Translations under genes and position numbers: made by a program
Notes under the pieces: model-generated
The model's database searches: none
Told to the model about the DNA's origin: nothing
What the model saw: the letters and a program-made list of their open reading frames with translations, nothing else
In this document: one piece after another, positions 3,253 to 29,737 of the stretch
How the letters are laid out: each line of letters opens with the position of its first letter
Numbering within the stretch: position 1 is the first letter of the stretch
From: a virus
Virus record (IMG/VR): IMGVR_UViG_3300032284_000253
Location: 1-32,985 of that record
Strand: one strand, 5' to 3'
DNA length: 32,985 bases

Positions 3253-3834
3253 ATGAAGATGTCAGATAGCATTTCCGAACTGGCGGCTGCCCTTGCCAAA
3301 GCGCAGGGGCAGATTGAAGCGGCCTCCAAGGGGTCCGTAAACCCCCATTTCAAATCCAAATATGCAGACCTGAATGCCCTGCGAGACGCGATCCGCGAGC
3401 CTATGGCGGCTAACGATTTGGCAGTCGTCCAGCTCCCTCGTATGTCAGAAAGGGAGGTGGAAGTTGAAACAATGGTCATTCATAAATCAGGTGAGTACAT
3501 CGCAGAAACCCTGCGGATGCCTGTCGGCCAGATGACAGCGCAGGCTGTAGGGTCTGCCCTGACCTATTGCCGACGGTATAGCCTATCCTCAATCCTGAAC
3601 CTGTCTGCTGACGACGATGATGGGAACGCTGCCTCTGAACGGCCTATGAAGCCCGCCGTTATGAAGGCATCTCCTAACCTGCTTGAGGATGGCCGGGAAG
3701 CCGCTGAGAAGGGCAAGGAAGCTCTTCGGGAGTGGTACAAGAACCTAAGTTCATCCGACCGCCAGTCATTGGATACGGACGACATCAAGACGCTTCAAAA
3801 GGTAGCTGAAACAGCAACGGCAGGGGCTGACTGA
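3253..3834 (+). CDS. erf: ERF-family single-strand annealing protein
   Basis: A 193-residue recombination protein that would bind single-stranded DNA and anneal complementary strands, working with the exonuclease encoded next. ERF-family features are in order: NPHFKSKYADLNALRDAI near residues 30-50, a strand ending VIHKSGEYIAETLRMPVG, then QAVGSALTYCRRYSLSSILNL and the acidic DDDDG. The C-terminal 60 residues are charged and variable, as usual. The start has an AAAGGA ribosome site. Its stop overlaps the start of the exonuclease gene (TGATG), which supports coupled synthesis of an exonuclease and annealing pair comparable to lambda Exo/Beta. Confidence 0.88.
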   Translation: MKMSDSISELAAALAKAQGQIEAASKGSVNPHFKSKYADLNALRDAIREPMAANDLAVVQLPRMSEREVEVETMVIHKSGEYIAETLRMPVGQMTAQAVGSALTYCRRYSLSSILNLSADDDDGNAASERPMKPAVMKASPNLLEDGREAAEKGKEALREWYKNLSSSDRQSLDTDDIKTLQKVAETATAGAD

Positions 3835-4481
3835 TGGAACAGCGTACTGAAGAATGGTTTGAGGCTAGGCTTGGAAAAGTTACGGCCAGCCGGGTGGCTG
3901 ATGTAATCGCCAAGACCAAAAGCGGCTATTCCGCCAGCCGGTCTAACTACATGGCCGAATTGATTTGCGAGAGACTGACAGGAAAACAGGGGGATTTCTT
4001 CCAGTCTACCGCGATGGCATGGGGGACAAATACCGAGCCAGCCGCCAGAGCTGCCTATAGTGCTGCATCAGGGGCACTGGTAACTGAAGTCGGATTTGTC
4101 TCCCATGCGCTCATTGAAATGGCAGGAGCAAGCCCTGATGGTCTTATAGACGACGATGGATTGGTGGAGATCAAGTGCCCCAATACGGCTACCCACATTG
4201 ACACGATCCTATCGCAAGAAGCTCCTTCTAAATATATTCCGCAGATGCAGTGGCAGATGGCTTGCACCGGGCGTCAATGGTGCGACTTTGTGAGCTTTGA
4301 CCCACGGATGCCGGAAGACATGCAGCTGTTCATCACAAGGGTGCCAAGGAACCCGGCGATGATCGACCTGCTGGAAAGGGAGGTTCGGTCTTTCCTTTTT
4401 GAGCTTGATCAGAAGATACACGACCTCAAGCAAAAGGTATCTGGGTTCATAGGTGGACTTCAGAAACACAACCTGATCTAG
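3834..4481 (+). CDS. YqaJ-family viral recombinase exonuclease
   Basis: A 215-residue nuclease of the lambda-exonuclease/YqaJ type, expected to resect double-strand ends to leave single strands for ERF. The N-terminus shows QRTEEWFEARLGKVTASR, the family opening. The PD-(D/E)XK centre is visible as SPDGLI (D102) and GLVEIKCP (E112, K114), with E68 upstream and the glutamine helix YIPQMQWQMA (residues 134-143). The final 30 residues are a helical extension. It overlaps erf by one base and is followed nine bases later by the SSB-like gene, making a complete recombination cassette. Confidence 0.9.
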   Translation: MEQRTEEWFEARLGKVTASRVADVIAKTKSGYSASRSNYMAELICERLTGKQGDFFQSTAMAWGTNTEPAARAAYSAASGALVTEVGFVSHALIEMAGASPDGLIDDDGLVEIKCPNTATHIDTILSQEAPSKYIPQMQWQMACTGRQWCDFVSFDPRMPEDMQLFITRVPRNPAMIDLLEREVRSFLFELDQKIHDLKQKVSGFIGGLQKHNLI

Positions 4482-4490
4482 GAGACAAAA

Positions 4491-4775
4491 ATGGCTTACG
4501 AAAAGCGCGACAACAGCGGTAGCTTGTTCAAGAACGACAAGCGAAAGACCGATAAGCACGCAAACATGGCCGGATCGATCATGGTCAATGGAGTTGATTA
4601 TTGGATCAATGGGTGGACCAAAGAAACCAAGAACGGAGATAAGTATATCAGCCTTTCGGTCACTCCAAAGGAAGCCAAAAAGGAGACGCAAGGTCAATCG
4701 GTTTACGATGACCATCGCAAAACGGAACCAGTATCTACCCGTAATGTAGATCTGGATGACGATATCCCGTTTTGA
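4491..4775 (+). CDS. SSB-like (DUF736-type) protein with DDDIPF tail
   Basis: A 94-residue protein. Residues 8-60 follow the pattern SGSLFKNDKRKTDKHANMAG, then VDYWINGWTKETKNGDKYISL, which resembles the small DUF736-like domain, a short beta domain. The last six residues are DDDIPF, the same acidic tip that bacterial SSB proteins use to recruit partner proteins. Together these suggest a phage single-strand-binding protein that interacts with host SSB-interacting enzymes. A canonical SSB OB-fold signature is not obvious, so the function is inferred from the tip and from its place between the exonuclease and a second nuclease gene. A purine-rich GGAGAC precedes the ATG. Confidence 0.7.
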   Translation: MAYEKRDNSGSLFKNDKRKTDKHANMAGSIMVNGVDYWINGWTKETKNGDKYISLSVTPKEAKKETQGQSVYDDHRKTEPVSTRNVDLDDDIPF

Positions 4776-5599: not shown

Positions 5600-6208
5600 A
5601 TGGCTACGACTAGTGTTAAAGTGAATCGTCACATCGACATCATTCGGCGGGAGGTCGTTATATGCGGAGTAAGAGACATCATGTTCGACCGGTACTCGGG
5701 GGACAACAAGACTCAACTGGAGCCTCATCAGAAATTTTACCTCCAACCTTCGGAAGAGTTGCCCGTTATTGGCATTCCGGCGGCGAACATTATCTCGTTC
5801 TTATCCGCACACAACACGAACTCAGCACCCAAGCGTCTGAGGGACAAAAGGCAATACAAGGACATTGCAAACGCCTGCCTCTCATTCGTTGACATTGAAG
5901 AAACATTTATCCCGTTCCTTCGGGATGGTAAACCGATCCAATTCGGTGCATTCGTAAATGACAAAGATGAAGTTAGTAAAGCCTATATCGACCGTCGTGT
6001 TGCTAAGTTGGAGAAGGGAATCCCTAATGTAAAGCACCGCCCTGTGCTTCCAACGCCATGGGAGTTGCGGTTCCATCTAACAATTTTCCCAAACAAGGAA
6101 ATTCAAGAACAGGAAATCTTGAATCTGTTTGAGGATGGCGGGCGAGCACTAGGATTTGGAACTTTCCGTGGTGTGTTTGGAAAGTTCTTCGTCAAATCTT
6201 GGGAATAA
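5600..6208 (+). CDS. RAMP/Cas7-like phage protein (family resemblance)
   Basis: A 202-residue protein. Its layout is an N-terminal strand (REVVICGVRDIMFDRY), a central IPAANIISFLSAHN, a segment KHRPVLPTPWELRFHLTIFP, and a C-terminal glycine-rich loop GRALGFGTFRGVFGKFFVKSW. I recognise this arrangement from hypothetical phage proteins whose loop of the type GxGxxRxxxGKF and two-part ferredoxin-like outline recall RAMP proteins such as Cas7. No Cas genes are present and no nuclease residue is obvious, so it may simply bind single-stranded DNA or RNA. It closes the recombination module and ends six bases before a strong hairpin that leads into the pentamer array. Confidence 0.55.
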   Translation: MATTSVKVNRHIDIIRREVVICGVRDIMFDRYSGDNKTQLEPHQKFYLQPSEELPVIGIPAANIISFLSAHNTNSAPKRLRDKRQYKDIANACLSFVDIEETFIPFLRDGKPIQFGAFVNDKDEVSKAYIDRRVAKLEKGIPNVKHRPVLPTPWELRFHLTIFPNKEIQEQEILNLFEDGGRALGFGTFRGVFGKFFVKSWE

Positions 6209-6213
6209 TCAGT

Positions 6214-6239
6214 TTGGGGGCGTGATATATCGCCCCCAA
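6214..6239 (+). terminator. Strong hairpin at the head of the repeat array
   Basis: A perfect 9-base inverted repeat, TTGGGGGCG (6214-6222) and CGCCCCCAA (6231-6239), encloses the loop TGATATAT. It begins six bases after the stop of the RAMP-like gene and ends five bases before the first GGCNN unit. No U-tract follows, so it may be an intrinsic-like terminator, an RNA processing or stability element, or the 5' boundary of an array transcript. Confidence 0.6.
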
Positions 6240-6244
6240 TTCGC

Positions 6245-6749
6245 GGCTAGGCAAGGCGGGGCGTGGCGGGGCAAGGCGAGGATCGGCACGGCGCGGCGGG
6301 GCTGGGCGAGGCAAGGAATGGCGGGGCGTTGCCCGGCATGGCAAGGCAAGGCAAGGATTCATTAGTAAATTTTGCGTGGCGGGGCAAGGCTATGCCGGGC
6401 GCGGCGTGGCAGGGACCGGCGGGGCTAGGCAAGGCGCGGTAGGGCGAGGCAAGGCAAGGATTCATTAGTAAATTTTGCGTGGCGGGGCGCGGCGCGGCAT
6501 GGCGAGGCACGGCACGGCGTGGCAAGGCAAGGCGAGGATTCATTAGTCAATTTTGCACGGCGGGGCTAGGCAGGGCGAGGCGAAGTTTAATTAGTCAATT
6601 TTTCCGGGCGAGGATGGGCAAGGCGCGGATAGGCTCGGCGTGGCATGGAAAGGCGCGGAGAGGCAAGGCTAGATTCCATTAGTAAATTTTGCGTGGCGGG
6701 GCGTTGCCCGGCGTGGCAAGGCATGGCAAGGTACGGCACGGCAAGGCTA
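6245..6749 (+). repeat. Degenerate GGCNN pentamer array divided by AT-rich boxes
   Basis: This 505-base stretch has no credible gene. It consists of about 75 pentamers of form GGCNN (GGCAA, GGCGG, GGCGT, GGCGA, GGCAC and others) in six runs of about 22, 16, 11, 5, 12 and 11 units, divided by five AT-rich boxes. Four of the five runs that follow a box open with GGCGG. A few units deviate to GGANN, and three are TGCCN, each making a tiny hairpin with its left neighbour (GGGCGTTGCCC twice, GGCTATGCC once). A stretch of about 36 bases starting at 6320 is nearly repeated at 6695. The plus strand is G-rich, so a transcript could form G-quadruplexes or R-loops. Frames crossing it are artefacts of a 5-base period. 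Confidence 0.9.
6356..6693 (+). repeat. Five-copy AT box family within the array
   Basis: Copies lie at 6356-6376, 6459-6479, 6537-6557, 6586-6605 and 6672-6693. The core is ATTAGT(A/C)AATTTT, usually preceded by GATTC and followed by GCG and then a new GGC run. Copies 1 and 2 are identical. Copy 3 has C for A in the core, copy 4 lacks GATTC, and copy 5 has one extra C. Starts are about 103, 78, 49 and 86 bases apart, so spacing is irregular. GATTC is a GANTC site, the CcrM methylation target in Alphaproteobacteria. Confidence 0.85.
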
Positions 6750-6755
6750 TCATTT

Positions 6756-7103
6756 ATGAAACGAGTTCGCATCACAGCTAAAATGAGGGTTGATATCTTC
6801 GAACGGCACGGCGGAATGTGTCATTTGTGCCAGATGAAGGTAATAGCCGGGGAGGACTGGGATGTTAGCCATCAGATACCTTTAGAAGCAGGAGGGCTAG
6901 ATGACGCATCGAACTGGCTCGTTGCTCATAGGAAGTGCCATCGCGTTCATACTGCTACTGTTGACGCTCCCCTCATCGCCAAAGTAAAACGAATACGTCA
7001 ACGCCATATAGGTGCTAAACAATCTAGAACGCCAATGCCATTTGGGCGAGGATCAAAATTCAAGCGCAAAATGGATGGAACTATCGTCAGGAGAGATGAA
7101 TGA
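6756..7103 (+). CDS. HNH endonuclease
   Basis: A 115-residue nuclease. The HNH core is clear: a zinc pair C22-x2-C25, then DWDVSHQIPLEAGG with H39, DDASNWLVAH with N53, and C61-H62. A basic C-terminal tail follows (KRIRQRHIG and FKRKMDGTIVRR), as in free-standing phage HNH proteins. The ATG at 6756 begins seven bases after the last pentamer, so AAGG in the array may serve as its ribosome site; earlier in-frame starts lie inside the repeat and are unlikely. Its role could be homing, packaging-related nicking or action on the neighbouring array. The sequence shows only the nuclease. It overlaps the next gene as ATGA. Confidence 0.85.
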   Translation: MKRVRITAKMRVDIFERHGGMCHLCQMKVIAGEDWDVSHQIPLEAGGLDDASNWLVAHRKCHRVHTATVDAPLIAKVKRIRQRHIGAKQSRTPMPFGRGSKFKRKMDGTIVRRDE

Positions 7104-8802: not shown

Positions 8803-8952
8803 ATGACATCCTATCTGGCGATCATTATTGGAATTACTTCTGTTTTTGCAGCAGTAGCAATTTTGATGTGGGTTGTAGCTCTGATTGTTTTTAAGGATGA
8901 TACCCCGCAGGATGATGAACCCTACGGGGACACCACAAACTATAAGCGTTAG
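8803..8952 (+). CDS. Short single-span membrane protein
   Basis: A 49-residue protein with a clear ribosome site (AAGAGG) nine bases after the previous stop. Residues 4-30 form one hydrophobic span (YLAIIIGITSVFAAVAILMW, then VVALIVF), followed by an acidic soluble tail (KDDTPQDDEPYGD). It could be a small holin-like or superinfection-related membrane protein, but it lies far from the lysis cassette on the other strand. Its stop codon TAG overlaps the TAA of the convergent tail fibre gene by two bases. Confidence 0.65.
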   Translation: MTSYLAIIIGITSVFAAVAILMWVVALIVFKDDTPQDDEPYGDTTNYKR

Positions 8953-10901
8953 GGGACCTTAGCCTCTAAGGCGGAAACCTTGGCAGAAAGCTCTTTCACA
9001 GCGTTGACCAAAGCAAACACAAGTTGACTTGTGTCAACCGATAAAAGTGTATTTCCTTCTGGGTCTGTAGTTTCACCAACCATAGAAGAAAATGGCGTGT
9101 TAAGAACGTCTTGAGCTAGCAATCCGGTATAAACAATACCGTTATCCGGCGTCCCATATTGACCGTTATATTGGTAGTTTATTGGATTAAGCTGGTTGAT
9201 AGCGGATATGCTGAGAGAATAATTTGTAACATTTTTCTTTGTTCTGCTGTCTGAAACATTTGTCCAAGTTGTAAATCCATAGGCATTTGCTGCCGTCATG
9301 GAAGAGCCAAGGCTAAAAGAACTGGTATTTACAAACCAACCAACATTTGTTACGCCACAGCTTACCAAACTGCTGTTCCCATAAATGGAACTATTCGCAG
9401 CAAAATTAAGTTGTACATATCCGGAAGCGGAACTAAGGCCTGCACTGGAAACTCCATTTAAAACAAAATTGTTCGCATTAACAGGCCCAGCTGATGCCGT
9501 AATTCCGCTGCTGCTGCTGGTCGAAATGCTTCCGCTTGTACTGATGACAGCAGAACCGCTCAAAGCGTTTGCGGTAGAAGCTGTTGTAGACGTAGCAGCA
9601 TTTCCGGAGCAACTTGCGGCTGTTGTTGCATTGGTTGCATTGGCAACTGCACCAGATACCTGAGACCCAGAAATGGAACCCGAAATAGTATTAGGCGTTC
9701 CAGATAGACTGACGCTGACTGCGCCGGTAGTTGGACTAGCCGTCAAGCTCAAGCCGCTAGAGCTGCTGGATGCACTGACAGACGAAACACCGCTGCTTGA
9801 TATAGAGACATTTGAGGCGCTCGTAATACGACCCTGAGCATCAACTGTGATCTGGGGAACCGTAGAAGAGCTGCCGTAGGTTCCTGCCCCCACAGACGTG
9901 TTAGCAAGGGCTAGGGTGCCAGCCGAATAGCTAAGACCTGTGCTGACAGCTATTTCCTCAACCGCCCCAGACGCTGCCGTTGTCCGGCCTAGAAGGCGAT
10001 TGGTAGCCATCGTCATTCCAGACGCTGTATATGCCCCTGTAAGCTGGGCACCGGGGATAGTGCTGGAAACAGACATGGCACTTGTACCATTGGCATATAG
10101 ATAGCCAAAAGTGCCAGCAACAGCGGCAATACCTGTTCCGCCAAATCGAGGGTCAAGCGTACCAGAAAGCGTAAAAGTTCCGCTTGTAGTGATCGGATTG
10201 GTAGAGCTGGACGTAAAAGTCAGCCCCATGTTGGTGGCTGCGGTCATCGCAATACTAGTGACCGATCCACCTCCGCCGCCGCCACCCGAATTGGGAAGCC
10301 ATGACGGGACACCGCTATTGAGAGTTAGGATATAGCCGTCTGTGCCTGCCGGAAGCTTGGAAAGTGTATTAATAGCAGAGGCGTAAATAATGTCGCCCTT
10401 GGCATAGCTGGATAGCCCTGTGCCACCATAGTTATAGGCGATTGGGGTAGAGATACTGAGATTGTTACCGGTCAGGCTTAGAGGAGCGGATACGTTCAAG
10501 TTGGCGTTGTCTGCCAAAATGACATTTCCACCATCGCTATAAACGAATGTACAGGCAGCCTTCACAGCCGTGACTGTAGATCCGGGGAAACCACCTGCTG
10601 AAGCAAGAGTAACTTTGTAAGCGCCGGAAGTTGTATTATCAACGATGTAATATCCACCTACGCCAGCGGGAAAATAAACCGTGACATCTGCACTAAGTGA
10701 ACCTTGAAGCAGAATATGAACATTCTGGCAATTCTCTTGCGTCAGCGTCACATTTGAGCTGCTCAAAGAAACTGGGAAAGATCCACCAAAAGCTTTATCA
10801 ATAATGTCCCAATCTTTGTTAACTGGAACATCCCACGCATCAACATCAGAATTATTAGAAGGCTTGATAATGGCTTTGTTGACCGTATAGGTGTAAGTCA
10901 T
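8949..10901 (-). CDS. Tail fibre with C-terminal S74 intramolecular chaperone
   Basis: A 650-residue fibre. The N-terminus (MTYTYTVNKAIIKPSNNSDV, then DVPVNKDWDIIDKAFGG) resembles virion-attachment parts of phage fibres. The middle is a long Ser/Thr/Gly-rich beta-repeat shaft with PIAYNYGGTGLSSY and RFGGTGIAAV. The last 101 residues are a peptidase-S74-type chaperone starting SDSRTKKNV at about residue 550, with LLAQDV and a terminal helix VNAVKELSAKVSALEAK for trimerisation. In this family the chaperone cuts itself off just before the SD motif after folding. This is the last gene of the leftward late operon and probably binds the host receptor. Confidence 0.85.
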   Translation of the reverse strand: MTYTYTVNKAIIKPSNNSDVDAWDVPVNKDWDIIDKAFGGSFPVSLSSSNVTLTQENCQNVHILLQGSLSADVTVYFPAGVGGYYIVDNTTSGAYKVTLASAGGFPGSTVTAVKAACTFVYSDGGNVILADNANLNVSAPLSLTGNNLSISTPIAYNYGGTGLSSYAKGDIIYASAINTLSKLPAGTDGYILTLNSGVPSWLPNSGGGGGGGSVTSIAMTAATNMGLTFTSSSTNPITTSGTFTLSGTLDPRFGGTGIAAVAGTFGYLYANGTSAMSVSSTIPGAQLTGAYTASGMTMATNRLLGRTTAASGAVEEIAVSTGLSYSAGTLALANTSVGAGTYGSSSTVPQITVDAQGRITSASNVSISSSGVSSVSASSSSSGLSLTASPTTGAVSVSLSGTPNTISGSISGSQVSGAVANATNATTAASCSGNAATSTTASTANALSGSAVISTSGSISTSSSSGITASAGPVNANNFVLNGVSSAGLSSASGYVQLNFAANSSIYGNSSLVSCGVTNVGWFVNTSSFSLGSSMTAANAYGFTTWTNVSDSRTKKNVTNYSLSISAINQLNPINYQYNGQYGTPDNGIVYTGLLAQDVLNTPFSSMVGETTDPEGNTLLSVDTSQLVFALVNAVKELSAKVSALEAKVP

Positions 10902-10909
10902 GGCAAACC

Positions 10910-12925
10910 TCAGATGTTCTGTTGAGCGATTTCAAGGGCTTTGGCGATATGGTCGTCATGAGCCGCGAGCAATGGTTCAGTCGTTTGATTGATGCGGTTC
11001 TTCGCAGCTTCTGCTGACCGTACAAGCGCATCGCCGCGATCTTCCGAGGAGACGCGACCGCCAGATTTGCGTTCTACGCGACCGCCTGTAGATTCAGGAA
11101 AATATGGACTTTGATAAGATGGTTTTGGCGGCGCTTGTGGGTTTGCACGTTCATATGCGTTAACTGATGCGGAGGCATAGGGCTGAGCGGCAACTGCTGC
11201 ATTCTTAACTATTTTCGCACCCAAAATTGGGGACGACTGAGACAAAACACCTAGACCATATGCGGCTTTTCCAAGGACATAAGGAGATGAAACAATAGGA
11301 ACAGCCGCAGCAGCCGCGCCTGTCTTCAAAGCGGTCCCAATGTCTCCCGTAAATCCTTGATGACCAGCTAGAATGCCAAGACCGCTAGTCAAAAGACCTT
11401 CCGCAACAGCTCGCATACCCCCCGGAGTTGGGTCATGCAACGCTGCCCCAGATACCATAAAAGGGATTTTTGGGTCTTTATCTGCAAGTCTTTGGAGAAC
11501 TTGTTGCGTTCCAATTTTACCACTGTCTCTTACCAATTTAGAGACAATAGAACTGGCAGCAGATTTAGACATTCCACCACTAGTTTTTTCAATATTATTC
11601 AAATCCGTTTGAAGTTGCTGCCATCCGCCCATAAGAGAGTCATATTCTGGCGCGACATCAGAAAGTCCTTTTCTGACAGCAGCATGAGCAGAAAGCATTG
11701 CATTTTTAGCATCCGTTGTTGGCTGCTTATATGCTTGATCGTATAGTTCTTGCTTTAACCGATCAAATCCAGCCAAAGTTCTTTCTGGAGAACCAGATGG
11801 ATATGCCTCTCTCATTGAGAGATGGTTTTCCAATTTATCTAAAACATCATGAGCACTCGGGTCCAACGCAAGATTACGAGGCCCTAGCTCTTGACGCTTT
11901 GCATCCAATGCATCCCGAATAGGTTGAATTGGGATGTCAGTCGTAGCAGCTCCAGAAAGAGCTTCCTTGGAGCTTTTCCATTTATTTATTTCTTCATTTT
12001 TAATTTCTGAAATAGCGTCCCTTAATGTATGTACAAACTTGACAGGATCTCCACCATTTTTCCCAGCATATTCATTGAACACTTGACGGATTTCAGGAGA
12101 TTGAGCCTGACCAGCCTTATAAGCTGTCTCAAAATTTACCTTGTCCCGACCAGTTAAGCCAGACGCCATCTTCTTTGCGATGCTTGGTATCACAGTTTGA
12201 GCGGTAAAATCAGCAGCTTTAATAGTACCCTTTAATGGGTCCATCACTGTCGATAATCCTGTCAATCCTTTACCAAGTGTAGATTCAGTTCCAGCAAGAG
12301 ACGACAAGCCCGTTATTGGAAGACTAATTGTTTGAAGATAACTAAAAGGATCTGTAGTAAGCATCTGCTTTAACGCAGCAGTATCTTCAGGTTTTCCCTG
12401 AATTGCACCATATGTTGCAGTAAATGGTTTTGCATATTCTGACCAGAAATGAAGTCGGCGTTCTTCTTGTTGGCGCATATCTTCATCAGTCATCGGCTTA
12501 CCGATACCGGATTCTTCAGGCGTAACCCACTGTTTTGCTAACGTAGAAGGCGTAAGAGTCTGCCCTTTAGCCATTGGTTGTGGTTCAGCGTAAGGAAGTT
12601 TCCTTACATCTCCACCAACTTCTGAAATTGCTTCAGGAGCTTTACCTTCAATTGCGCCAGACACCATTTTGAATGGCGCTGATAGTTGAGAAAGAAACGA
12701 CATAGGAGCGGCACGAGCCGTTCCTCCAGCCACTTCGCTCCACGGCATTGTATAATAATTAGGCTTTTTCTCTTCACCAGCGGCAAATGCCTCTTGCAAC
12801 TTTTGAGCCTCATCCCCTGTTTCAGGAAGAAAAACAGGAGACTTATATGATGCTCCATCCCCAGAAGCACTAGGAGCAGGTTGAACTGCAAAGAGATCAT
12901 CAAGTGAAGGTGTCTCGTCAGCCAT
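10910..12925 (-). CDS. Large virion protein, possible ejection protein
   Basis: A 671-residue, mostly helical protein. It has an acidic, proline-containing N-terminus (MADETPSLDDLFAVQPAP), a long helical middle with a hydrophobic glycine/alanine part near residues 520-580 (LLTSGLGILAGH, LKTGAAAAAVPIVSSPYVLG), and a C-terminus containing GGRVERKSGGRVSS followed by a helix (TTEPLLAAHDDHIAKALEIA). Placement directly after the giant virion protein, with a TGATG overlap, suggests a partner in a DNA-ejection channel as in short-tailed phages. The GGRV/RKSGG motif recurs in the giant protein. I know of no enzymatic function. The ATG at 12925 was preferred to the GTG one codon earlier. Confidence 0.6.
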   Translation of the reverse strand: MADETPSLDDLFAVQPAPSASGDGASYKSPVFLPETGDEAQKLQEAFAAGEEKKPNYYTMPWSEVAGGTARAAPMSFLSQLSAPFKMVSGAIEGKAPEAISEVGGDVRKLPYAEPQPMAKGQTLTPSTLAKQWVTPEESGIGKPMTDEDMRQQEERRLHFWSEYAKPFTATYGAIQGKPEDTAALKQMLTTDPFSYLQTISLPITGLSSLAGTESTLGKGLTGLSTVMDPLKGTIKAADFTAQTVIPSIAKKMASGLTGRDKVNFETAYKAGQAQSPEIRQVFNEYAGKNGGDPVKFVHTLRDAISEIKNEEINKWKSSKEALSGAATTDIPIQPIRDALDAKRQELGPRNLALDPSAHDVLDKLENHLSMREAYPSGSPERTLAGFDRLKQELYDQAYKQPTTDAKNAMLSAHAAVRKGLSDVAPEYDSLMGGWQQLQTDLNNIEKTSGGMSKSAASSIVSKLVRDSGKIGTQQVLQRLADKDPKIPFMVSGAALHDPTPGGMRAVAEGLLTSGLGILAGHQGFTGDIGTALKTGAAAAAVPIVSSPYVLGKAAYGLGVLSQSSPILGAKIVKNAAVAAQPYASASVNAYERANPQAPPKPSYQSPYFPESTGGRVERKSGGRVSSEDRGDALVRSAEAAKNRINQTTEPLLAAHDDHIAKALEIAQQNI

Positions 12926-15900
12926 CACTGGACTCCCGTTGTCGGCGTAGACGTGGGCTTTTGGACTCGTGTTGGGAAATAACGTGTCACATCGGGTGCT
13001 GCTTTCCCATAGGTTTTTTTGATAACACGATCTATGTCATCTGCTGTATACTTTCCCTTCATCATTTCCATAAATGCTTTAGGCTGCAAGGCAATTAGAT
13101 CCTTCAGAACCGCTTGTTCATCAGCATACTTTTTATCGCTATTAATTCGATCAAAATCGGCTGCTGCATTTGCGCCAAATCCACCTGCTGAGAGGTAGCT
13201 GGTCAAATGAGCCTGACGATCAAGATCTTTCCTATTAAGCATCAGGTTCTGAGCAGCTAGGTCGGCTGCCGCCATGGGATTTTGAGAAATATTAGGCAAC
13301 GCGGAACGCAACCTTTCGAGAGCAGCATAGCTAGCTTGATTCCCAGATGCTGCTGTACGAGAGCCAAGCATGGTATCAATCTTGTCTTGGATGTTCTTAT
13401 ATTGATCCAAGTCCCCGAACGTTACAGGGTTTCCACTTTTATCGGTTGCCCCGATAGAACGAGAAACTGTGTTCAAGAAGTTAACAATATTGGCTCTGAC
13501 ATCTGCACCATACCCGGAAGTGTTTATGCCACCCTTAGTCCCTGCATCAGCAATTATTGTCGACAGTTCCCGATGAAGAGGAGCAACATCCCTAGAAGAT
13601 TGAGCAGCATTGGTTGTTGATGCCGCATAGGCATCTGCTGATTTTCTAAGAGTTTCATTTGCGGGTGTTGGGGACATCATACGGGATTTTTCATCCCTAG
13701 ATGCTTTGACTGATGTGTCATCAAATCCAACGCCACGAGGGACTGCTGGAGGCTCACTAGGCTTTGGAGGCCATAGGACAGGAACTTCACCTGTAGGTGA
13801 TTTTGAAGGTGTCGTAGAACTAGGAACGGGAGTAGGTGACGGAGTGGCCGCAGGAGTTTGATCAGGGGCCGGGGCAGGAATATTAGGGCCGCTTGGAATA
13901 GGGGGAACTGATCCCTTTTCAGTTGATGCAGGAGGCAAAGTTCCAGCCTTTCTCCTTTCTGCAATAACAGCTTCTACGCGCTTTTGAGCGTCCTGCGGCA
14001 AAGCTCCAAGTGTCTCGATACGCTCACCCGCAGCCTTCCTACGGATATAATCATCAAACTCGAGAGGTGTTCCATCAGCAAGGAACACATACTTTCCATA
14101 GCCTGTGTCATAGATTGATTTATAAAAGTTTTGCAGGCTAACACCTTCTGTTTGGGCTTTAAGAAGATCTGCCTGCTGCTTTGTTTCAGCAGTCTTAGCG
14201 CCAGCAAGGCCAAGAGTTGCTTGCTCTTGATCCTGTGCGCTCATCGCAGACAGACCGCCAATGATACCTTCACCAAGCGCCTGACCAAACTTCGGGCGCG
14301 GGGATGCCATTGTGGTAGCTACAGTAGCAAGAAGCGGAACCCAGAAGTTGCTTTGAGTTAACTCTTCAGGAAGGTTCAAACCTGCCTTTTGGGCAAGGCT
14401 CGCATATGGCCGCTGGGTTGGAAGGACTGCGGTAGAGAACTTGCCTTGCGGCGCAAGACCTCCAGAGGGGGCCTCACTAGGAGGCTGAGCAGGCTGCTTT
14501 GAAACAACAGGTGCATATACATTATTTTTATCAATCAGGCTTGCCTCAAAAGCACGTCGATCCGCTCTTGCCCCACCATTTGTCCCACCAAGATTGTTAA
14601 CAGCGGTTGCGAGAGCTGTGTTATTTCCAGATTTCGCGGCAGCCACAATTTGTGAAGGAAGAGATCCATGATTGTAAGCAACAGATGTAAGAGAACCTTG
14701 GCTATCTGGATCTAACTTATTCCAGATATTTTCCCCAACCTGCTTCTTTGCAGCTCCCATAAAATCAGGAACTCGGCGCTTCAAATCGCGCTCGGCATCT
14801 TCCTTTGAAATCACAGTGTCTTTTGTGACAGGCAGGACAGTTCCATCATCTTTCGTAATGGTGTCAGATCCATACCCAATCCGAAGTTTATCAACGTCCA
14901 TCTTCGGCTTTTGGATAAGCCCCTCACCGCGACGGATGATGGCATATGCGGGATGCTCACCAGAGTCATCTGTAACTGTATCAGCACCAGCAAGCTGCTG
15001 ACGGGCAAGTTGCACTGTATCGTCAGGCGTAACGTCTTCTGCTGTAGAGTCGATGGTGAGCGGATTACGCGGGTTCAGGCCGCCACCGCCATCGGTTGCA
15101 TATCCGCGACGGTTAGCAGCTCCTCCTCTAGCAAGGAATAGGAAGGGAAGAACATCCGCAAAGAAACTCCCACCGCCTTCTGCGGCAGCCAATCCACCTC
15201 CTCCGATTGCAGCAGCATCAGCCCCAGCGCCAAGGCTCATCAAAGAACCACCGATGTCGCCAATCGCTTTTGCAGCACCCAATCCGGAAGAAATCATTCC
15301 AAGCGGGTTACTTCCCGAACCACTTCCGCTACCCGTATATCCAACATTAAGCTTATATTGACCCTTTTCATCTGGGATGTTGATACCCGATCCAAAGGTT
15401 TTATACATACCTTCGGGAGTATCATCGGATGAATCATCATTCAATGGACCACCAGATTTGCGCCCAATACGACCGCCACGGGCTGCAAAATCAAATCCGC
15501 CAAGACCGCCTAGCAGATCGCTATCTGACGTAAGCTCAGGAGCCAATCCTGCTGTTTGAAGCTCTGGGGCACTTGCACCACCAAGTCCGGGTTCAAGATC
15601 TGCTGCTGGCTTGGTAGTAGTTGTCGTTGTTCCACCGGGCAATTCAGAGACAGGGCGACCGCCTTGATATGCCTGACCAGAAGATGCCGCAGTTTCAGAC
15701 GATCCACCAAACAGACCCGGAACCTTTTTACCTGTATTTTCGTCCGTATAACCAAGAAGCTTTTGCTTGGCCTTGCTACCAAGATCGGCAAGCTTGGCGA
15801 TGCTTTCACCCATCTTGGCAGCTTCATTGATGCCGCTTGTTGGGGCTTGAGGCTTGAAGGTAGGCGTCATAAGCTGTCGGGTAGACCCCGGCTGCAACTT

Positions 15901-18705
15901 GATCCGCTCAAAGTTCTGACCGCCGGGAAGATTGGCATACATCTGCTGTTGAGCAGCCGCCAAAGACGAGAAGTCCGGCGCACCACCATAGGCATAGCCT
16001 ACGCGACCACCACGGTTCCAGCCGCTTGAACTGCTGCCCGAACTGCTGCCAGATGACGGACCCTTGCCAGTTGCCGTGCCAGAGGATTGCTGCGGCATAT
16101 ACTGCCCAGAGGTATCCCCATAGCGTGTAGTCGGCTGATAAGAGGATGATCCTTTACCCGTCGCGGTAGGCATCCCCTGCGTCCCATAGTTTGTGGGAGC
16201 TGCGCCATAGCCGGAACCGCTATAAGAAGGTTGGAACCCCTTCCCATAGGATGATGGATTATATCCAGACATGGAGGCAGGTCCATAATTAGCTGCGCCC
16301 GGATATTGGTATCCGCCGTATCCCTGACGACCTTGAGCTTCGGCAGAATTAGCAAATGCAGATTGTATAGTCTGGGGAGACATAGAACCGCTCTGCAATT
16401 GTTGATTATAGTATCCATAGCCACTAGGGTCAGACGTACGCCCTAAATATGCTCCATACATATTATTAATCATTGAGTTAGGATCAAAAGATGACCCATA
16501 AGCAGTCGGCGGTGCAGCATAAAACCCATAGCGATTAGGTTGAACACCAAGTCCCTGACCCACAAATGAACTCGGATTATAGGTTAGTGGTGTTTGATTA
16601 ACGAGAGCCTTCTCATTAGATGCGGCAAAAGAACTTGCGACCTGCGATGGAGACATAGTCCCATCAGCAATTTGTTGTGCCCAGTAATCAACACCGGAAG
16701 TATCACCAGAACGGTTTAGATCGCTGCTGTACAAGGAACCGACATAAGCCTTGGCTTGGTCAAGGGTCATACGGCCAGATGAATCAGTTGTTCCAGTAGA
16801 TCCTGTAGTTGAAGTAGAACTTGGATGAGCTGTCTTGTACTCAGATGATGCATCAAGCTGGGACTTCACCTGATCGGCAGTCCACCCCTGTTGCATCAAG
16901 TTTTGATAATATTGAAGTCCAGAAGCATCCGGGGTACGGCCAAACTCGCTCTTATACAAATCAGAAATTGTCTTAGTATAGTCAGCCGGAGCGGTTGACC
17001 CAGAGGTCGTTCCGGTCGTTCCGGTCGTGCTAGGGCTGCCTGATGTATTTGCCTTTTGCGATTTTAGCAGGTTTTGGTATTCTGAAGATTGATCCATAGC
17101 CAACTGAACTTGGCGTGGCGTCATGCCACCAGCCATTTGCTGTTCCCAATAGGCAAGTCCTGCGGGATCAGCTTGTCGGTTAAGTTCAGACTGATACAAA
17201 CTTTGAAGCGTTTGATAGTACGGGTTACCGTCACCCGTGTCAGCCGTGCCGCCATCATCAAACCCCTGACGGGCCATAGACGGCAAAACAGCACCACCCT
17301 CGCTATTGGGGACAAGACCGCCTGAATAGAAGTGTCCACGCTTTGCAGCGTCAGACGTAGCCTTGTTGTAATCAACGGTCTTATACCCAGAAGCCAATCC
17401 GACTGCATCTGGATGCTTATCCTCAACCTCTTGGGCCATCAGTCCAAGACGGCGCTCGTTATCGCCCTTGAGGTTGTAGGCATAGATATTTTGACCATCA
17501 AAGGTCTTACCAACCTTCTCAACATTGTCCTTCAGGCGCTTATCCGACCAGCCAGACGGTTGTGTCGTCGTAGTCGTGGAACCCGACAGAGACCCCGTGC
17601 CTTCCGCAATATTCGCAAGGAACTGCGCCTGTTGATAGGGGAACCCCTGCTGCTGGAGGAACTGGTTGTAAAGTGCCGACTTTGCAGCCTGATCGGTCTG
17701 CTGCTGGACCTGCCCAACGCCCATCTGGGCCTGTGCGCCAGAAAGACCTGCGTTGTATCCAGAAAGGCCAAGATTTGCATAATTCTGGCCGTATTGCTGG
17801 CCGATGTTGAAGAGGTTCTGACCGGCCTGCTGTTGAGCAGCACCCGTCTGGGAACCCATCCCATAAATGCCCTGACCAATGCCAGCCGCTGCCTGTGCCG
17901 CTCCAAGGCCCTGCTGATACTGTTGTTGCCCAAGAGCTGCTTGCTGCTGGGCACCAAACTGCTGGGCGGCCCGGTTAGCCTGCTGAGCGGAAAGATCAAC
18001 ACCCTGCTGCTGCTGGAAAGCACCAAGACCTTGCCCATAACCCTGCTGAAGCAAGTTAGACAACGTAGCCTGATTAGCTAGACTTTGCTGCTGGCCGAGG
18101 TTAGCCAGCGCAATGCCCGCACGATCTCCGCCAAATGCCCCAGCCCGGATAGCATCACCAGTCATCTGAGACCGCTGCTGGGCATTCTGCTGGCCTTGTA
18201 ACGCCTGCTGGGCAGCCACAACATTAGACATATAGGGCGACATATACTGCTGAACGGCATCCTGAGAGAATGCCATCGGAGTGATGTTTTGGGTCGCCCC
18301 CGGAAGATAACCTTGTGCCTGAGCCGTAGCCTGCTGACCGGCCTGAGTGCCCCCAAGAATGCCAGCCAAGGCACCCTGATAAATGCCCTGAGCTTGCTGC
18401 TGTGCCCCAAGCGTAGACCCAAGACCTGCCTGAACCAGCGGGGCAGCAGCCGACGCTCCCGCCGTCATAGCCTGCTGGCCGGTAGAAATATCCGGAGCAT
18501 AAGACCCCATCAACTGATTAACATTGCCAACAGCGGCCTGCTGGCTAGAGGTTAGTGGGGCGACAAAGGCGCTGGGATCTTGAGAATATGAAGTAAAAGG
18601 CTTTTGAGCTACTTGCTCAGCTCTGGAGTTCACAGCATTGTAGCGGGCCAATACTTCGGGTGGAATCGACACTGTTTGCGATGACGTAGTAGATTTGCCG
18701 CCCAT
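12925..18705 (-). CDS. Giant multi-domain virion protein (S74-like, DUF4214, lysozyme-like)
   Basis: A 1926-residue protein. Residues 1-385 are Gln/Ala/Gly-rich and helical. About 386-455 read as an S74-type module (SDKRLKDNVEKVG, LGLMAQEV) placed internally. Four DUF4214-like repeats follow near 493-545, 572-626, 648-700 and 743-793, each of the form YxxxLxRxxDxxGxxYW. A Gly/Tyr/Ser-rich part comes next, then GGR motifs near 893, 1075 and 1192. Residues about 1250-1388 resemble a GH24-type lysozyme: RRGEGL with a likely catalytic Glu near 1260, RIGYGSD and SVAYNHGSLP. A proline-rich linker (1592-1655) leads to a helical C-terminus. It is probably ejected or tail-bound and may open peptidoglycan during entry. 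Confidence 0.75.
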   Translation of the reverse strand: MGGKSTTSSQTVSIPPEVLARYNAVNSRAEQVAQKPFTSYSQDPSAFVAPLTSSQQAAVGNVNQLMGSYAPDISTGQQAMTAGASAAAPLVQAGLGSTLGAQQQAQGIYQGALAGILGGTQAGQQATAQAQGYLPGATQNITPMAFSQDAVQQYMSPYMSNVVAAQQALQGQQNAQQRSQMTGDAIRAGAFGGDRAGIALANLGQQQSLANQATLSNLLQQGYGQGLGAFQQQQGVDLSAQQANRAAQQFGAQQQAALGQQQYQQGLGAAQAAAGIGQGIYGMGSQTGAAQQQAGQNLFNIGQQYGQNYANLGLSGYNAGLSGAQAQMGVGQVQQQTDQAAKSALYNQFLQQQGFPYQQAQFLANIAEGTGSLSGSTTTTTQPSGWSDKRLKDNVEKVGKTFDGQNIYAYNLKGDNERRLGLMAQEVEDKHPDAVGLASGYKTVDYNKATSDAAKRGHFYSGGLVPNSEGGAVLPSMARQGFDDGGTADTGDGNPYYQTLQSLYQSELNRQADPAGLAYWEQQMAGGMTPRQVQLAMDQSSEYQNLLKSQKANTSGSPSTTGTTGTTSGSTAPADYTKTISDLYKSEFGRTPDASGLQYYQNLMQQGWTADQVKSQLDASSEYKTAHPSSTSTTGSTGTTDSSGRMTLDQAKAYVGSLYSSDLNRSGDTSGVDYWAQQIADGTMSPSQVASSFAASNEKALVNQTPLTYNPSSFVGQGLGVQPNRYGFYAAPPTAYGSSFDPNSMINNMYGAYLGRTSDPSGYGYYNQQLQSGSMSPQTIQSAFANSAEAQGRQGYGGYQYPGAANYGPASMSGYNPSSYGKGFQPSYSGSGYGAAPTNYGTQGMPTATGKGSSSYQPTTRYGDTSGQYMPQQSSGTATGKGPSSGSSSGSSSSGWNRGGRVGYAYGGAPDFSSLAAAQQQMYANLPGGQNFERIKLQPGSTRQLMTPTFKPQAPTSGINEAAKMGESIAKLADLGSKAKQKLLGYTDENTGKKVPGLFGGSSETAASSGQAYQGGRPVSELPGGTTTTTTKPAADLEPGLGGASAPELQTAGLAPELTSDSDLLGGLGGFDFAARGGRIGRKSGGPLNDDSSDDTPEGMYKTFGSGINIPDEKGQYKLNVGYTGSGSGSGSNPLGMISSGLGAAKAIGDIGGSLMSLGAGADAAAIGGGGLAAAEGGGSFFADVLPFLFLARGGAANRRGYATDGGGGLNPRNPLTIDSTAEDVTPDDTVQLARQQLAGADTVTDDSGEHPAYAIIRRGEGLIQKPKMDVDKLRIGYGSDTITKDDGTVLPVTKDTVISKEDAERDLKRRVPDFMGAAKKQVGENIWNKLDPDSQGSLTSVAYNHGSLPSQIVAAAKSGNNTALATAVNNLGGTNGGARADRRAFEASLIDKNNVYAPVVSKQPAQPPSEAPSGGLAPQGKFSTAVLPTQRPYASLAQKAGLNLPEELTQSNFWVPLLATVATTMASPRPKFGQALGEGIIGGLSAMSAQDQEQATLGLAGAKTAETKQQADLLKAQTEGVSLQNFYKSIYDTGYGKYVFLADGTPLEFDDYIRRKAAGERIETLGALPQDAQKRVEAVIAERRKAGTLPPASTEKGSVPPIPSGPNIPAPAPDQTPAATPSPTPVPSSTTPSKSPTGEVPVLWPPKPSEPPAVPRGVGFDDTSVKASRDEKSRMMSPTPANETLRKSADAYAASTTNAAQSSRDVAPLHRELSTIIADAGTKGGINTSGYGADVRANIVNFLNTVSRSIGATDKSGNPVTFGDLDQYKNIQDKIDTMLGSRTAASGNQASYAALERLRSALPNISQNPMAAADLAAQNLMLNRKDLDRQAHLTSYLSAGGFGANAAADFDRINSDKKYADEQAVLKDLIALQPKAFMEMMKGKYTADDIDRVIKKTYGKAAPDVTRYFPTRVQKPTSTPTTGVQ

Positions 18706-19505
18706 TACTGTTCTCCGCCGTCAATTTGCTTTTCTGCGCATGTATTATTCTTGTTTTTACTATTTCTATTCTTATTCATTTCTATTGTTCTTAGTCTTTG
18801 TGCTTCGCGTCGCTCTGGAGTCCAAGCATTCTTGAACTTTTCTATTGCTTCCGAAGATCTCTTCTTTCCAATAAGGGAAGCGCGGCGGCGTTCAATCTCT
18901 TCTGGGGGGTGAACTCGGCCAAGGGATGCTTCTCTAGCTTTTTGGGCATGTTCTGCGGATAGCTTCCGTCCAGTAAGAGCCTTAGAAACCTTTTCGTAAT
19001 GTTCCTTGGTTCTTACCCTGTTCTTTTGAAATTTGCTTAGCTTTTCCTTAACCTCTGGTTTATTCAAAGCAATCTTAATTGAATTTGAGAGTGTCTTACG
19101 CAGTTCATCCGTAAGAGCCTTCTTATAAGACTCCCCAATCTTTCTCTTGTGTTTCTCGGAAAGCTTACGCCCTACCTTTGCCTTTCGCATAAGGTTGCGG
19201 GTTTCTTCGCTGGGATTGGACCCACCTTCTCCGCCAGAGGTCAAATTGGCAAGCGCAACACCGATGGATGTCCAATTGGCGATGCGATCCATTTCGATCT
19301 CAAAGGCCTCTTCCTCGGTAAGGTTTTCCGCTACGAGACGCACTTCAACGCACATCCCGATTTGATTCAGCTTGCTTTGGATGTTCGTATGGTATCTGTT
19401 CCGGCCATACATAACATTCGCCCGGCGGCCCATCCCCTTGCCTACATAGAAGCATACGTCCCTATCGGGTCGCCAATGCTCGTAAACGTAGAACTTGCCG
19501 CCCAT
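18705..19505 (-). CDS. GIY-YIG homing endonuclease with NUMOD3 repeats
   Basis: A 266-residue free-standing homing enzyme. The catalytic domain spans about residues 1-95 with FYVYEHW, CFYVGKG, GRR and the acidic EEEAFEIEMDRIA. Several NUMOD3-type DNA-binding repeats follow (SEETRNLMRKAKVGRKLSEKH, GRKLSAEHAQKAREASLG, GKKRSSEAIEKFKNAW), then a basic tail. It is inserted between the GNAT gene and the giant virion gene without breaking either. Its TAA overlaps the ATG of the giant gene. Its first four codons (MGGK) and their surroundings repeat the start of the giant gene, which suggests target-site duplication or capture. The gene is AT-richer than its neighbours, as expected for a mobile gene. 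Confidence 0.88.
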   Translation of the reverse strand: MGGKFYVYEHWRPDRDVCFYVGKGMGRRANVMYGRNRYHTNIQSKLNQIGMCVEVRLVAENLTEEEAFEIEMDRIANWTSIGVALANLTSGGEGGSNPSEETRNLMRKAKVGRKLSEKHKRKIGESYKKALTDELRKTLSNSIKIALNKPEVKEKLSKFQKNRVRTKEHYEKVSKALTGRKLSAEHAQKAREASLGRVHPPEEIERRRASLIGKKRSSEAIEKFKNAWTPERREAQRLRTIEMNKNRNSKNKNNTCAEKQIDGGEQ

Positions 19506-27665: not shown

Positions 27666-29737
27666 AGTGGTGCGCCAAGTTTTACTTTGTCGGATAACAT
27701 AGTGTCAGGCAGGCGGATATTGTAAAACGCGGCGCGGGAGTACCAGCCGTCGGCGGGGGCGCCACCGTTCACACTGCCCAGATAGAACGTGGAAGTCCAT
27801 GTCGGCGCGGTCGTGTCGGTCGTTACCGCAACCCCCGTATTAATGATTGAACGCCCACCAGAACTCCACGCAAGAGCGGCGCGGTTCTGGTTTGTCCAAG
27901 TCGCCCCGGTATTCCCAAACAGCGTGCCGGTGCCAATATTTGTTCCTGAACCGATAATGAACAGGGTCGTTTGAGTACTGGACCCAATCAGACGCCGGTT
28001 AGCGCTATCTGTCGCGGCCTCCTGCGTCGTCTCCACCAACGCCGTCCCCTGTGAACTTGCTAAGATTGTCGCAGGAGTTCCCGTAATTGTTGCTATGTCA
28101 GCAGCGCGGGTTAGGGAAGATCCATATGTTGGTATGGCAGATGAGGCGGTTTGGGAGAAGGAGGAAAGGAGTTCGAGTTGGGGGAGGCCGATGCGTAGAG
28201 TGATATCTATTGCTTGCCCGGTTGTCACGCCAAACGCAACGCAAGGATAAGCGGCGGTCGTTGTAGATGCGGAAAAAGAAGACGTACCCGTATATCGTGT
28301 AAGGGTCGTTGTAATGGAGCCGATTGTGGTATTATTTGACGCGACAAACGCCCCTGTATTAAGCTGCTGTATATTTAGAATAAAGGAACCAACATTTGTT
28401 GCTGTGCCACCCGAACGCTTCAGAAAATAACTTGAATTCCAAGACTGCGACCCAGATGCTGGAACTGCCGTATTGGACTCAACAAATACCTGCACACCTT
28501 GTGAAATTGTTCCAGTTGGAAGCCCAGCAACTCGAAACTCGAGATAATTAATCCCATTCTCAGTGCCAGAACCAACAACAGATGACCCTAATCCACTAAC
28601 GCCATTAAAATAGATAACCCAATTTGTTGGCGGTGTTCCCTGTGAGAGACCACTGACGCTTGCTCCAGTGACACTATCTGTGCGGCTTGTTGAAGTGACG
28701 TAAGAGAATGATGTTGATGCCACAACAGCAGAAACAACAAATGTCCCGTTGTATTCAGACGCATTGGTGCCTGTTGCACCAGTGATTGTGACAAGATCAC
28801 CAACCGAGAAATTGTGCGTTGCCATTGCCGCTACAGCAGTCGCAGAGGCTGTGCGGGAAATGGTAATTCCAGAGCCAGTCGCGCGAGCAGTTCCTGCAAC
28901 CGCCCCCTGCATCGTATTGTTACGAATGCTATTTGTTCGCGCACCTTCCAGCAACAATCCTTTTGCTGCAAGCGTAGATGGATTGTAGTCGAAACGGGGG
29001 CCGTAATAGGCGGCAGAAGTCGTCGCAGGCATGTCCGTGATGGTGGACTGCGCGGCGGTGACAAGTGATAGTTGCGGCAATATAATGCGAAGCGTTACGT
29101 CTATCGCAAGGCTGCCAGCGTTAAATTGAATGTTGAGTGTTGGATAAATATAGGCTGTAGTCGCCTGATTAAGCGTTTGTTGTGTTTGGAAGTTTGCAGG
29201 CGTGCTAGTCAGCGACCCCTTGATGTCGCTACCCGGCAATGTCGCAAGATAAGTTCCGCCACTGTTCTGCATATTGATGGCAAGATAGATTTGCGTAATA
29301 TTCGAAATAGACCCAGACACTAGAGAAACATAAGACCCAGAAATCCAATTTTGAGCATTGACCGCCGCAACTTGGGACAAACTTTCAAACTGGATATATG
29401 CTGTTCCGGAAGATGAAGTTGTTCCAAACACACGTAAGTCTATATAGGTTCCTTGAGATACGGTCCCTGTTCCAATGACTGACGAAGAAAGGCCGCTAAG
29501 ACCTCCAATAGACCAATTGTTAGGTAAAGTACCGGGCGTTCCCGCTGAAGCACCAGACATGCTGTTATTGCGAATCTGATTATTAGGCGCATAAAAAAGA
29601 TTACCGGAAGAATTGAAATAGGTTGCATTGCCAGCACGAGAAAACGAAATCCAAGACGGAAGAGCCGTTGCGCCGAGAAAGTTATAGCTAGCGGTCGGGC
29701 AGATAGAGTTTGTATTGTATGGTATCGTGACGCTCAT
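27662..29737 (-). CDS. Fibre or lectin-like receptor-binding protein with duplicated module
   Basis: A 691-residue beta-rich protein. It contains two related modules, about residues 50-225 and 267-520. Each starts with IRNNSM or IRNNTM, carries a NNW or TNW motif, and ends with RIILPQLSLV or RIGLPQLELL, as in carbohydrate-binding modules of phage fibres. The second copy is interrupted near residues 290-350 by an extra domain (FSVGDLVTITGATG, YNGTFVVSAV). The C-terminal 170 residues (TLFIIGSG, ADGWYSRAAFYNIRLPDTML) look like a concanavalin/LamG-type lectin fold. It overlaps the collagen-like gene by one base (TGATG style) and probably binds host glycans. Confidence 0.75.
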   Translation of the reverse strand: MSVTIPYNTNSICPTASYNFLGATALPSWISFSRAGNATYFNSSGNLFYAPNNQIRNNSMSGASAGTPGTLPNNWSIGGLSGLSSSVIGTGTVSQGTYIDLRVFGTTSSSGTAYIQFESLSQVAAVNAQNWISGSYVSLVSGSISNITQIYLAINMQNSGGTYLATLPGSDIKGSLTSTPANFQTQQTLNQATTAYIYPTLNIQFNAGSLAIDVTLRIILPQLSLVTAAQSTITDMPATTSAAYYGPRFDYNPSTLAAKGLLLEGARTNSIRNNTMQGAVAGTARATGSGITISRTASATAVAAMATHNFSVGDLVTITGATGTNASEYNGTFVVSAVVASTSFSYVTSTSRTDSVTGASVSGLSQGTPPTNWVIYFNGVSGLGSSVVGSGTENGINYLEFRVAGLPTGTISQGVQVFVESNTAVPASGSQSWNSSYFLKRSGGTATNVGSFILNIQQLNTGAFVASNNTTIGSITTTLTRYTGTSSFSASTTTAAYPCVAFGVTTGQAIDITLRIGLPQLELLSSFSQTASSAIPTYGSSLTRAADIATITGTPATILASSQGTALVETTQEAATDSANRRLIGSSTQTTLFIIGSGTNIGTGTLFGNTGATWTNQNRAALAWSSGGRSIINTGVAVTTDTTAPTWTSTFYLGSVNGGAPADGWYSRAAFYNIRLPDTMLSDKVKLGAPL

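What the first reader, a model, noticed from the sequence alone, without database searches (positions are those of the whole stretch)
6245..6749. Array of about 75 degenerate GGCNN pentamers split by five AT boxes
The stretch is built on a strict 5-base period (GGC plus two variable bases) in six runs, each separated by an AT-rich box with core ATTAGT(A/C)AATTTT. Four of the five runs after a box restart with GGCGG. The period is not a multiple of three, so it is not coding, and the conserved GGC with free NN is not what simple slippage yields. I know of no named element with this form. It could be a structured or G-quadruplex RNA, an R-loop origin of replication, a protein-binding scaffold or a decoy for nucleases.
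Basis: seen in the sequence. Interest (0 to 1): 0.88.

Follow-up and report, generated by a model that had tools for sequence, protein, structure and literature searches.

The report
VIPR guide-RNA array in a phage
The odd run of GGC-plus-two-letters repeats is a set of guide RNAs of a VIPR system, a recently described CRISPR-like weapon with which phages recognise and silence rival phages; this is a new, uncultivated example with unusually short AU-rich tails between its guides.

Summary
In detail: 82 pentamers (66 GGC, 10 GGA, 2 GGT) in six runs, split by five AT boxes, at 6245-6749. It is the guide-RNA (vrRNA) array of a VIPR system (preprint PMC13142463, 2026). The gene directly upstream (5600-6208) encodes a Vipr protein. 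Its profile hits the solved SUSP1 Vipr sequence (PDB 36pp, E 1.7e-46), and its model (pLDDT 95) has the Cas7/Csm3 RAMP fold (Z 12.3). Of 76 distinct relatives found by protein alone, 71 carry same-strand GGCNN arrays within 1 kb of the gene, and none carries an antisense one. The AT box is a short, unstructured vrRNA tail or cleavage site. Related phages share it (TTnRTTNGTnnnTTT), where others have a folded tail. No target of the window's own guides was found: seeds from five runs gave only chance hits. The 1-nt-skip code was checked independently in Mycobacterium phages: one Quico guide matches the tape-measure gene of Che8, Wachhund, Squirty and Minnie at 19 of 20 positions, with skips on wobble bases, and spares Quico's own gene. 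So this is a new member of a known, very recently described kind.

The parts
5600..6208 (+). vipr gene: 202-aa RAMP (Cas7/Csm3-like) protein with G-loop GxGTFRGVFGKF; matches phrog_4652 (function unknown)
6214..6239 (+). 9-bp hairpin (TTGGGGGCG...CGCCCCCAA) between the vipr stop and the array; different hairpins lie at the same place in L130 and L131
   Evidence: -18.4 kcal/mol, z -4.1; L130 z -3.2, L131 z -3.8
6245..6359 (+). vrRNA run 1, 23 units (NN: TA AA GG GT GG AA GA TC AC GC GG TG GA AA AT GG GT CC AT AA AA AA TT); may hold more than one guide
6361..6373 (+). AT box 1, core of the compact vrRNA tail / cleavage site
6378..6462 (+). vrRNA run 2, 17 units
6464..6476 (+). AT box 2
6481..6540 (+). 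vrRNA run 3, 12 units
6542..6554 (+). AT box 3
6559..6583 (+). run 4, 5 units, probably a truncated guide
6590..6602 (+). AT box 4
6607..6671 (+). run 5, 13 units, several of them GGA
6678..6690 (+). AT box 5
6695..6749 (+). run 6, 11 units, followed by TCATTTATGAAACG, which overlaps the start of the HNH gene and vaguely resembles the box
6756..7103 (+). HNH endonuclease gene; neighbour only, not a conserved partner of vipr (homologue within 4.5 kb in 3 of 86 loci)

Best explanation
This is the vrRNA array of a phage VIPR system. The vipr gene at 5600-6208 makes a small RAMP protein. The array downstream on the same strand is transcribed, and at the AT boxes it is separated into individual vrRNAs of about 10-20 GGC/NN units. 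Each Vipr subunit grips a GGC and presents the following NN. The NN dinucleotides together pair with double-stranded DNA of a rival phage under a one-base-skip code (target NNxNNx..., skip at the codon wobble base), and bound complexes silence transcription of the target gene. Shown here: the array, the RAMP fold, the Vipr family relationship, the conserved gene-array linkage, the conserved tail motif, and the skip code in a related Mycobacterium phage system. Inferred: expression, cleavage at the boxes, subunit-per-pentamer binding, and the identity of the targets.
For: Array statistics. The upstream protein's family profile hits PDB 36pp 'SUSP1 Vipr protein' with E 1.7e-46, and the window protein alone hits it with E 0.0022 over the G-loop region. 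AlphaFold2 model pLDDT 95.1, pTM 0.88; best structural matches are Csm3/Cas7 RAMPs, Z 12.3 over 165 residues. About 84 of 119 IMG/VR stretches found by the array pattern alone encode a homologue of this protein. Conversely, of 76 distinct loci found by the protein alone, 71 have sense arrays within 1 kb (median gap 44 bp upstream, 13 bp downstream), none antisense, and only 7 further arrays lie in 550 kb beyond 1 kb. The preprint PMC13142463 describes exactly this pair (RAMP protein plus GGY/NN pentamer RNAs). Independent test of the code: the Quico (Mycobacterium) guide AA TT AT TT TT AT GC CC TC AT matches 9 consecutive units plus one further base (19 of 20) with a 1-nt skip in the tape-measure genes of Che8, Wachhund, Squirty and Minnie. 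The target copies differ only at skip bases and the skips are wobble positions. Quico's own gene matches 14 of 20. Skips of 0, 2 and 3 give at most 14, 17 and 15, and 2,000 unit shuffles give at most 17.
Against: No convincing target of the window's own guides was found in IMG/VR with exact 8-unit seeds from five runs or in 5.5 Mb of held DNA counting both strands. The array is somewhat degenerate (12% GGA; run 4 has 5 units), so some guides may be decayed. The tail is not folded, unlike the SUSP1-type tail. There is no RNA evidence.
Confidence: 0.93

Rival explanations
1. A Vipr-like RAMP bound to GGCNN RNA, but used for the phage's own gene regulation or for RNA targets (antisense-like) rather than against rivals.
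For: No rival target of the window guides was found. The arrays lie in early/recombination operons near Erf and exonuclease genes.
Against: No good match of the window guides inside the window itself. In Mycobacterium phages the guide matches rivals and spares its own phage. The preprint shows dsDNA targeting and inter-phage targets for two VIPR clades.
Confidence: 0.05
2. A decaying remnant: the vipr gene is intact, but the array has lost function by mutation.
For: 12% GGA and several broken units against 2.7% GGA across 560 runs; run 4 has only 5 units.
Against: The vipr gene is full-length with all clade-invariant residues. The boxes are perfectly kept, the GGC scaffold dominates, and NN stay diverse.
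Confidence: 0.1
3. Array as replication origin/R-loop, G-quadruplex element, packaging site or nuclease decoy.
For: G-rich strand with strong GC skew.
Against: The arrays are tied to the vipr gene, not to replication genes, and occur several per genome up- or downstream of it, always in sense. They do not fold better than shuffles. The HNH gene is not a conserved partner. G-quadruplex formation itself was not tested.
Confidence: 0.02

Closest known systems
VIPR systems (Viral Interference Programmable Repeat; PMC13142463 / bioRxiv 2026.04.26.720920), in particular Escherichia phage SUSP1
   Same: Phage-borne small RAMP protein (profile match to PDB 36pp), flanking non-coding GGY/NN pentamer arrays, several guides, each followed by a shared tail.
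   Different: Runs of 5-23 units against 9-16; tail is a short unstructured AU box instead of a folded or pseudoknotted tail; guides lie head to tail without promoters between them; 12% GGA units; no conserved accessory (vap) gene recognised; only distantly related in sequence to SUSP1 Vipr (phmmer E 0.0022).
VIPR loci of Mycobacterium cluster-F phages (Quico, Florinda, Donkeykong, Brocalys and others; not annotated as such)
   Same: vipr gene next to GGCNN arrays.
   Different: Guides are separated by a 4-base unit (GGCAGGC) rather than an AT box; the array lies upstream of vipr; the protein belongs to another clade.
Class 1 CRISPR effector subunits Csm3/Cas7 (types III and VII)
   Same: Same RAMP fold with G-loop (Z about 12).
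   Different: They use CRISPR repeat-spacer RNAs read in a contiguous stretch; this window has a 5-base GGC/NN array and one RAMP gene alone.

Membership tests
VIPR | Vipr protein: small RAMP with RRM core, G-loop and thumb | tested here: met
   Profile hit to PDB 36pp SUSP1 Vipr E 1.7e-46; model with RAMP fold, Z 12.3 to Csm3; invariant W154, G185, G194 and nearly invariant G187, R190. The thumb was not examined separately.
VIPR | Tandem GGY/NN pentamers with hypervariable NN | tested here: met
   68 of 82 units GGY, 10 GGA; 13 different NN among the GG-led units
VIPR | Array in intergenic DNA flanking the vipr gene, same strand | tested here: met
   The array starts 37 bp after the vipr stop; 71 of 76 relatives alike, 0 antisense
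VIPR | Invariable 3' tail after the repeats | tested here: met
   The AT box after runs 1-5 is shared with L130, L146 and L147
VIPR (SUSP1-type tail) | Tail folds into a conserved structure or pseudoknot | tested here: not met
   Box-1 tail z 0.04 and run 3 plus tail z 0.77 against shuffles. The preprint states this for the SUSP1 clade, not for all types.
VIPR | vap accessory gene | tested here: inconclusive
   HNH homologue in 3 of 86 loci, 121-aa gene in 4 of 86.
VIPR | NN read with a 1-nt skip against dsDNA of rival phages | tested here: inconclusive
   No target of the window guides. Met for a Mycobacterium relative.
VIPR | About 100-nt vrRNAs expressed and bound to Vipr | not testable with these tools
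   Needs RNA sequencing and pull-down
CRISPR-Cas class 1 | CRISPR repeat-spacer array and several cas genes | tested here: not met
   No CRISPR-like array among the tandem repeats; only one RAMP gene recognised, no other cas-like hit among the window proteins scanned

The most novel reading that the evidence does not exclude
Compact AU-tail VIPR: a VIPR array class in which guides lie head to tail in one transcript. A 13-nt AU box serves both as the minimal unstructured vrRNA tail and as the cleavage site (for example by host RNase E), replacing the folded tail of SUSP1-type systems. It is shared by several uncultivated phages with 64-76% identical Vipr proteins.
Probability: 0.35. Interest if true: 0.55.

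Novelty: new member of a known kind. Interest (0 to 1): 0.5.

Why it matters
VIPR is a just-described RNA-guided system thought to precede CRISPR. This locus shows it in an uncultivated phage group, with no relative detectable in 50,697 phage records at the cut-off used. It offers a minimal guide format with an unstructured tail, and a clade of at least 76 distinct loci in which array evolution and processing can be compared. The Mycobacterium result gives a tractable, well-sequenced phage set in which natural VIPR targets can be read out by computation.

Tried and rejected
Rfam: no credible match. Pfam and NCBIfam have no family for the Vipr protein. HNH as accessory protein: not conserved next to vipr. 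Targets of the window guides: exact 8-unit, 1-nt-skip seeds of runs 1, 2, 3, 5 and 6 in IMG/VR gave 8, 1, 16, 6 and 9 stretches, with no meaningful extension. The best, run 6 against L251 (18 of 18 for nine units, in frame), is about what nine seed hits give by chance, since one extra unit matches at 1 in 16. Cross-scan of 560 guides against all loci then held: no excess for any skip, top hits low-complexity or self. Guides of the Candidimonas prophage (L212): one 13-unit guide, no match in 268 genomes of its family. Donkeykong guide against IMG/VR: up to 21 of 22, but the sites were chosen by a 16-base seed, so not significant. The idea that each guide holds exactly one [TAC]GC unit was dropped: 375 of 560 runs have none. 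The preprint's supplement was not readable here, so the VIPR type number could not be assigned and it is unknown whether compact tails are described there.

Full report
WHAT IS THERE. The stretch 6245-6749 consists of 82 pentamers in six runs, 66 of them GGCNN, separated by five boxes with the core ATTAGT[AC]AATTTT. GGCNNGGC occurs 48 times against a shuffle mean of 2.8 and maximum of 9. The register shifts by 3 at each box. The gap from the last full unit to the next GGC is constant (23 bases from GGATT to GGC), so neighbouring runs abut the box directly and no promoter-like site lies inside the array.

CONTEXT. The window is a 32,985-base uncultivated virus record. It has a rightward early block: Erf-like annealing protein 3253-3834, exonuclease 3834-4481, single-strand binding protein 4491-4775, an unknown gene 5600-6208, the array, HNH endonuclease 6756-7103. 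Most of the rest is a leftward structural block. The 762-aa stabilisation protein is closest (52% identity) to a spring-water virus record.

THE KEY GENE. About 84 of them encode a homologue of the window's 202-aa gene 5600-6208, found without using that gene in the search. Its most conserved part is a glycine-rich loop, G.G.[FWY]RP..GRF.V. An AlphaFold2 model from 67 sequences has pLDDT 95.1. Foldseek and VIA-align place it with Csm3/Cas7 subunits of CRISPR effectors (Z 12.3, 165 aligned residues). The family profile hits the SUSP1 Vipr protein, PDB 36pp, with E 1.7e-46, and the window protein alone does so with E 0.0022.

THE KNOWN SYSTEM. PMC13142463 describes VIPR: a phage-borne ancestral RAMP, Vipr, with vrRNAs of GGY/NN pentamers. 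The NN dinucleotides pair with dsDNA under a one-base-skip rule, the skip usually falls on the codon wobble base, and the targets are competing phages and satellites. A full-text search found no other paper on it.

LINKAGE TEST. I then searched by protein only. Of 76 distinct vipr genes (52-78% identical to the window's), 71 have a sense-strand array within 1 kb and none has an antisense one. The median gap is 44 bp when the array is upstream and 13 bp when it is downstream. Only 7 further arrays lie in 550 kb beyond 1 kb. Two of the five exceptions are genes cut by a contig end or lying at one (L201, L207).

THE AT BOX. In L130 (Vipr 76% identical) the array is also downstream of vipr and is split by GGTTTCATTAGTCCCTTTTCTGCAC. 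L146 and L147 have GGATTTGTTAGTTCGTTTCGCG and GGATTGATTTGTTGATTTGCGG. Aligned, the motif is TT-n-RTT[ATC]GT-nnn-TTT. It does not fold (z near 0), whereas L128, with a 78% identical Vipr, has a strongly folded tail (z -4.4). Across the clade the last units before a tail are mostly AA or GA, which suggests a constant 3' end rather than guide letters. I infer that the box is a compact vrRNA tail and probably the place where the transcript is cut; AU-rich single-stranded boxes of this kind are typical RNase E sites (own knowledge, not tested). A hairpin between the vipr stop and the array (z -4.1) has counterparts of different sequence in L130 and L131, perhaps an mRNA end or processing signal.

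TARGETS. For the window's own guides, exact 8-unit seeds with a one-base skip gave only chance-level hits in IMG/VR, and nothing stood out in 5.5 Mb of held DNA counting both strands. One site, run 6 in L251, matches nine consecutive units in frame, but it was selected by a 16-base seed and is not significant.

INDEPENDENT CHECK OF THE CODE. The first BLAST of the array region hit Mycobacterium phages. These carry a Vipr gene (E 5.6e-44) beside arrays; the Donkeykong array is annotated as a hypothetical protein, gp48. Twenty-seven phage records hold this locus. One Quico guide matches the tape-measure gene of Che8 at 19 of 20 positions, nine units in a row, with a one-base skip only. Other skips reach at most 17, and 2,000 shuffled guides reach at most 17. 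Wachhund, Squirty and Minnie match equally, differing from Che8 within the site only at skip bases. The skip base is the wobble base, and Quico's own gene matches only 14 of 20. The single mismatched base lies in the last unit before the array's separator, which is AT in most of the guides read. Nine guides and four skips were tried, so some multiple testing applies; the consistency across four target phages and the escape of self make chance unlikely.

HOW IT MOST LIKELY WORKS. The array is transcribed with or after vipr, cut at the boxes, and each vrRNA is coated by Vipr subunits, one per pentamer. The complex binds rival phage DNA by NNxNNx pairing and blocks transcription. Only the anatomy, the homology, the linkage and the code in the Mycobacterium relative are shown here; the rest follows from the preprint.

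VERDICT. A new member of a known kind. It is not an unnamed element, but the kind is only months old in the literature, and the compact AU-tail format in an uncultivated clade may be a variant worth characterising.

Noticed in passing
L254:3470-4480 (Quico), L253:3330-4430 (Donkeykong), L281:27500-28488 (Brocalys): VIPR loci in 27 Mycobacterium phage records, arrays unannotated or called hypothetical proteins. A Quico guide matches the tape-measure gene of rivals Che8, Wachhund, Squirty and Minnie with a 1-nt skip on wobble bases.
   Followed up: partly
L253, L254, L281, also L029 and L070: In these arrays guides are separated by a single 4-base unit (GGCAGGC), a register slip that resets the pentamer phase. 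This is a different separator from the window's AT box.
   Followed up: partly
window 6214-6239: Strong hairpin between the vipr stop and the array; non-homologous hairpins at the same position in L130 and L131.
   Followed up: partly
window 6290-6750: Run 6 and the 3' part of run 1 look like diverged copies (GG GT CC GT AA AT AA / GG GT CC AT AA AA AA), both with a TGC unit, suggesting that guides arise by duplication followed by NN change.
   Followed up: no
window 18705-19505 and 31459-32145, minus strand: Two similar genes among the structural genes, starting FYVYEHWR.DRD.CFYVGKG.GRRA, which by eye look like GIY-YIG homing endonucleases; no Pfam hit at 0.001.
   Followed up: no
window 29737-30960, minus strand: Collagen-like protein (Pfam PF01391) with imperfect GPTGPTGPT repeats; the mirror-strand ORFs over it are spurious.
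   Followed up: no
window 8949-10901, minus strand: Tail fibre with a C-terminal endosialidase-type chaperone domain (Peptidase_S74, PF13884); an SDKRLKDN motif like that of such chaperones also lies inside the 1926-aa protein 12925-18705.
   Followed up: no
L147:3445-4300: Very long array downstream of vipr (five runs of 20-37 units by the parse), much longer than the 9-16 repeats reported for vrRNAs.
   Followed up: no
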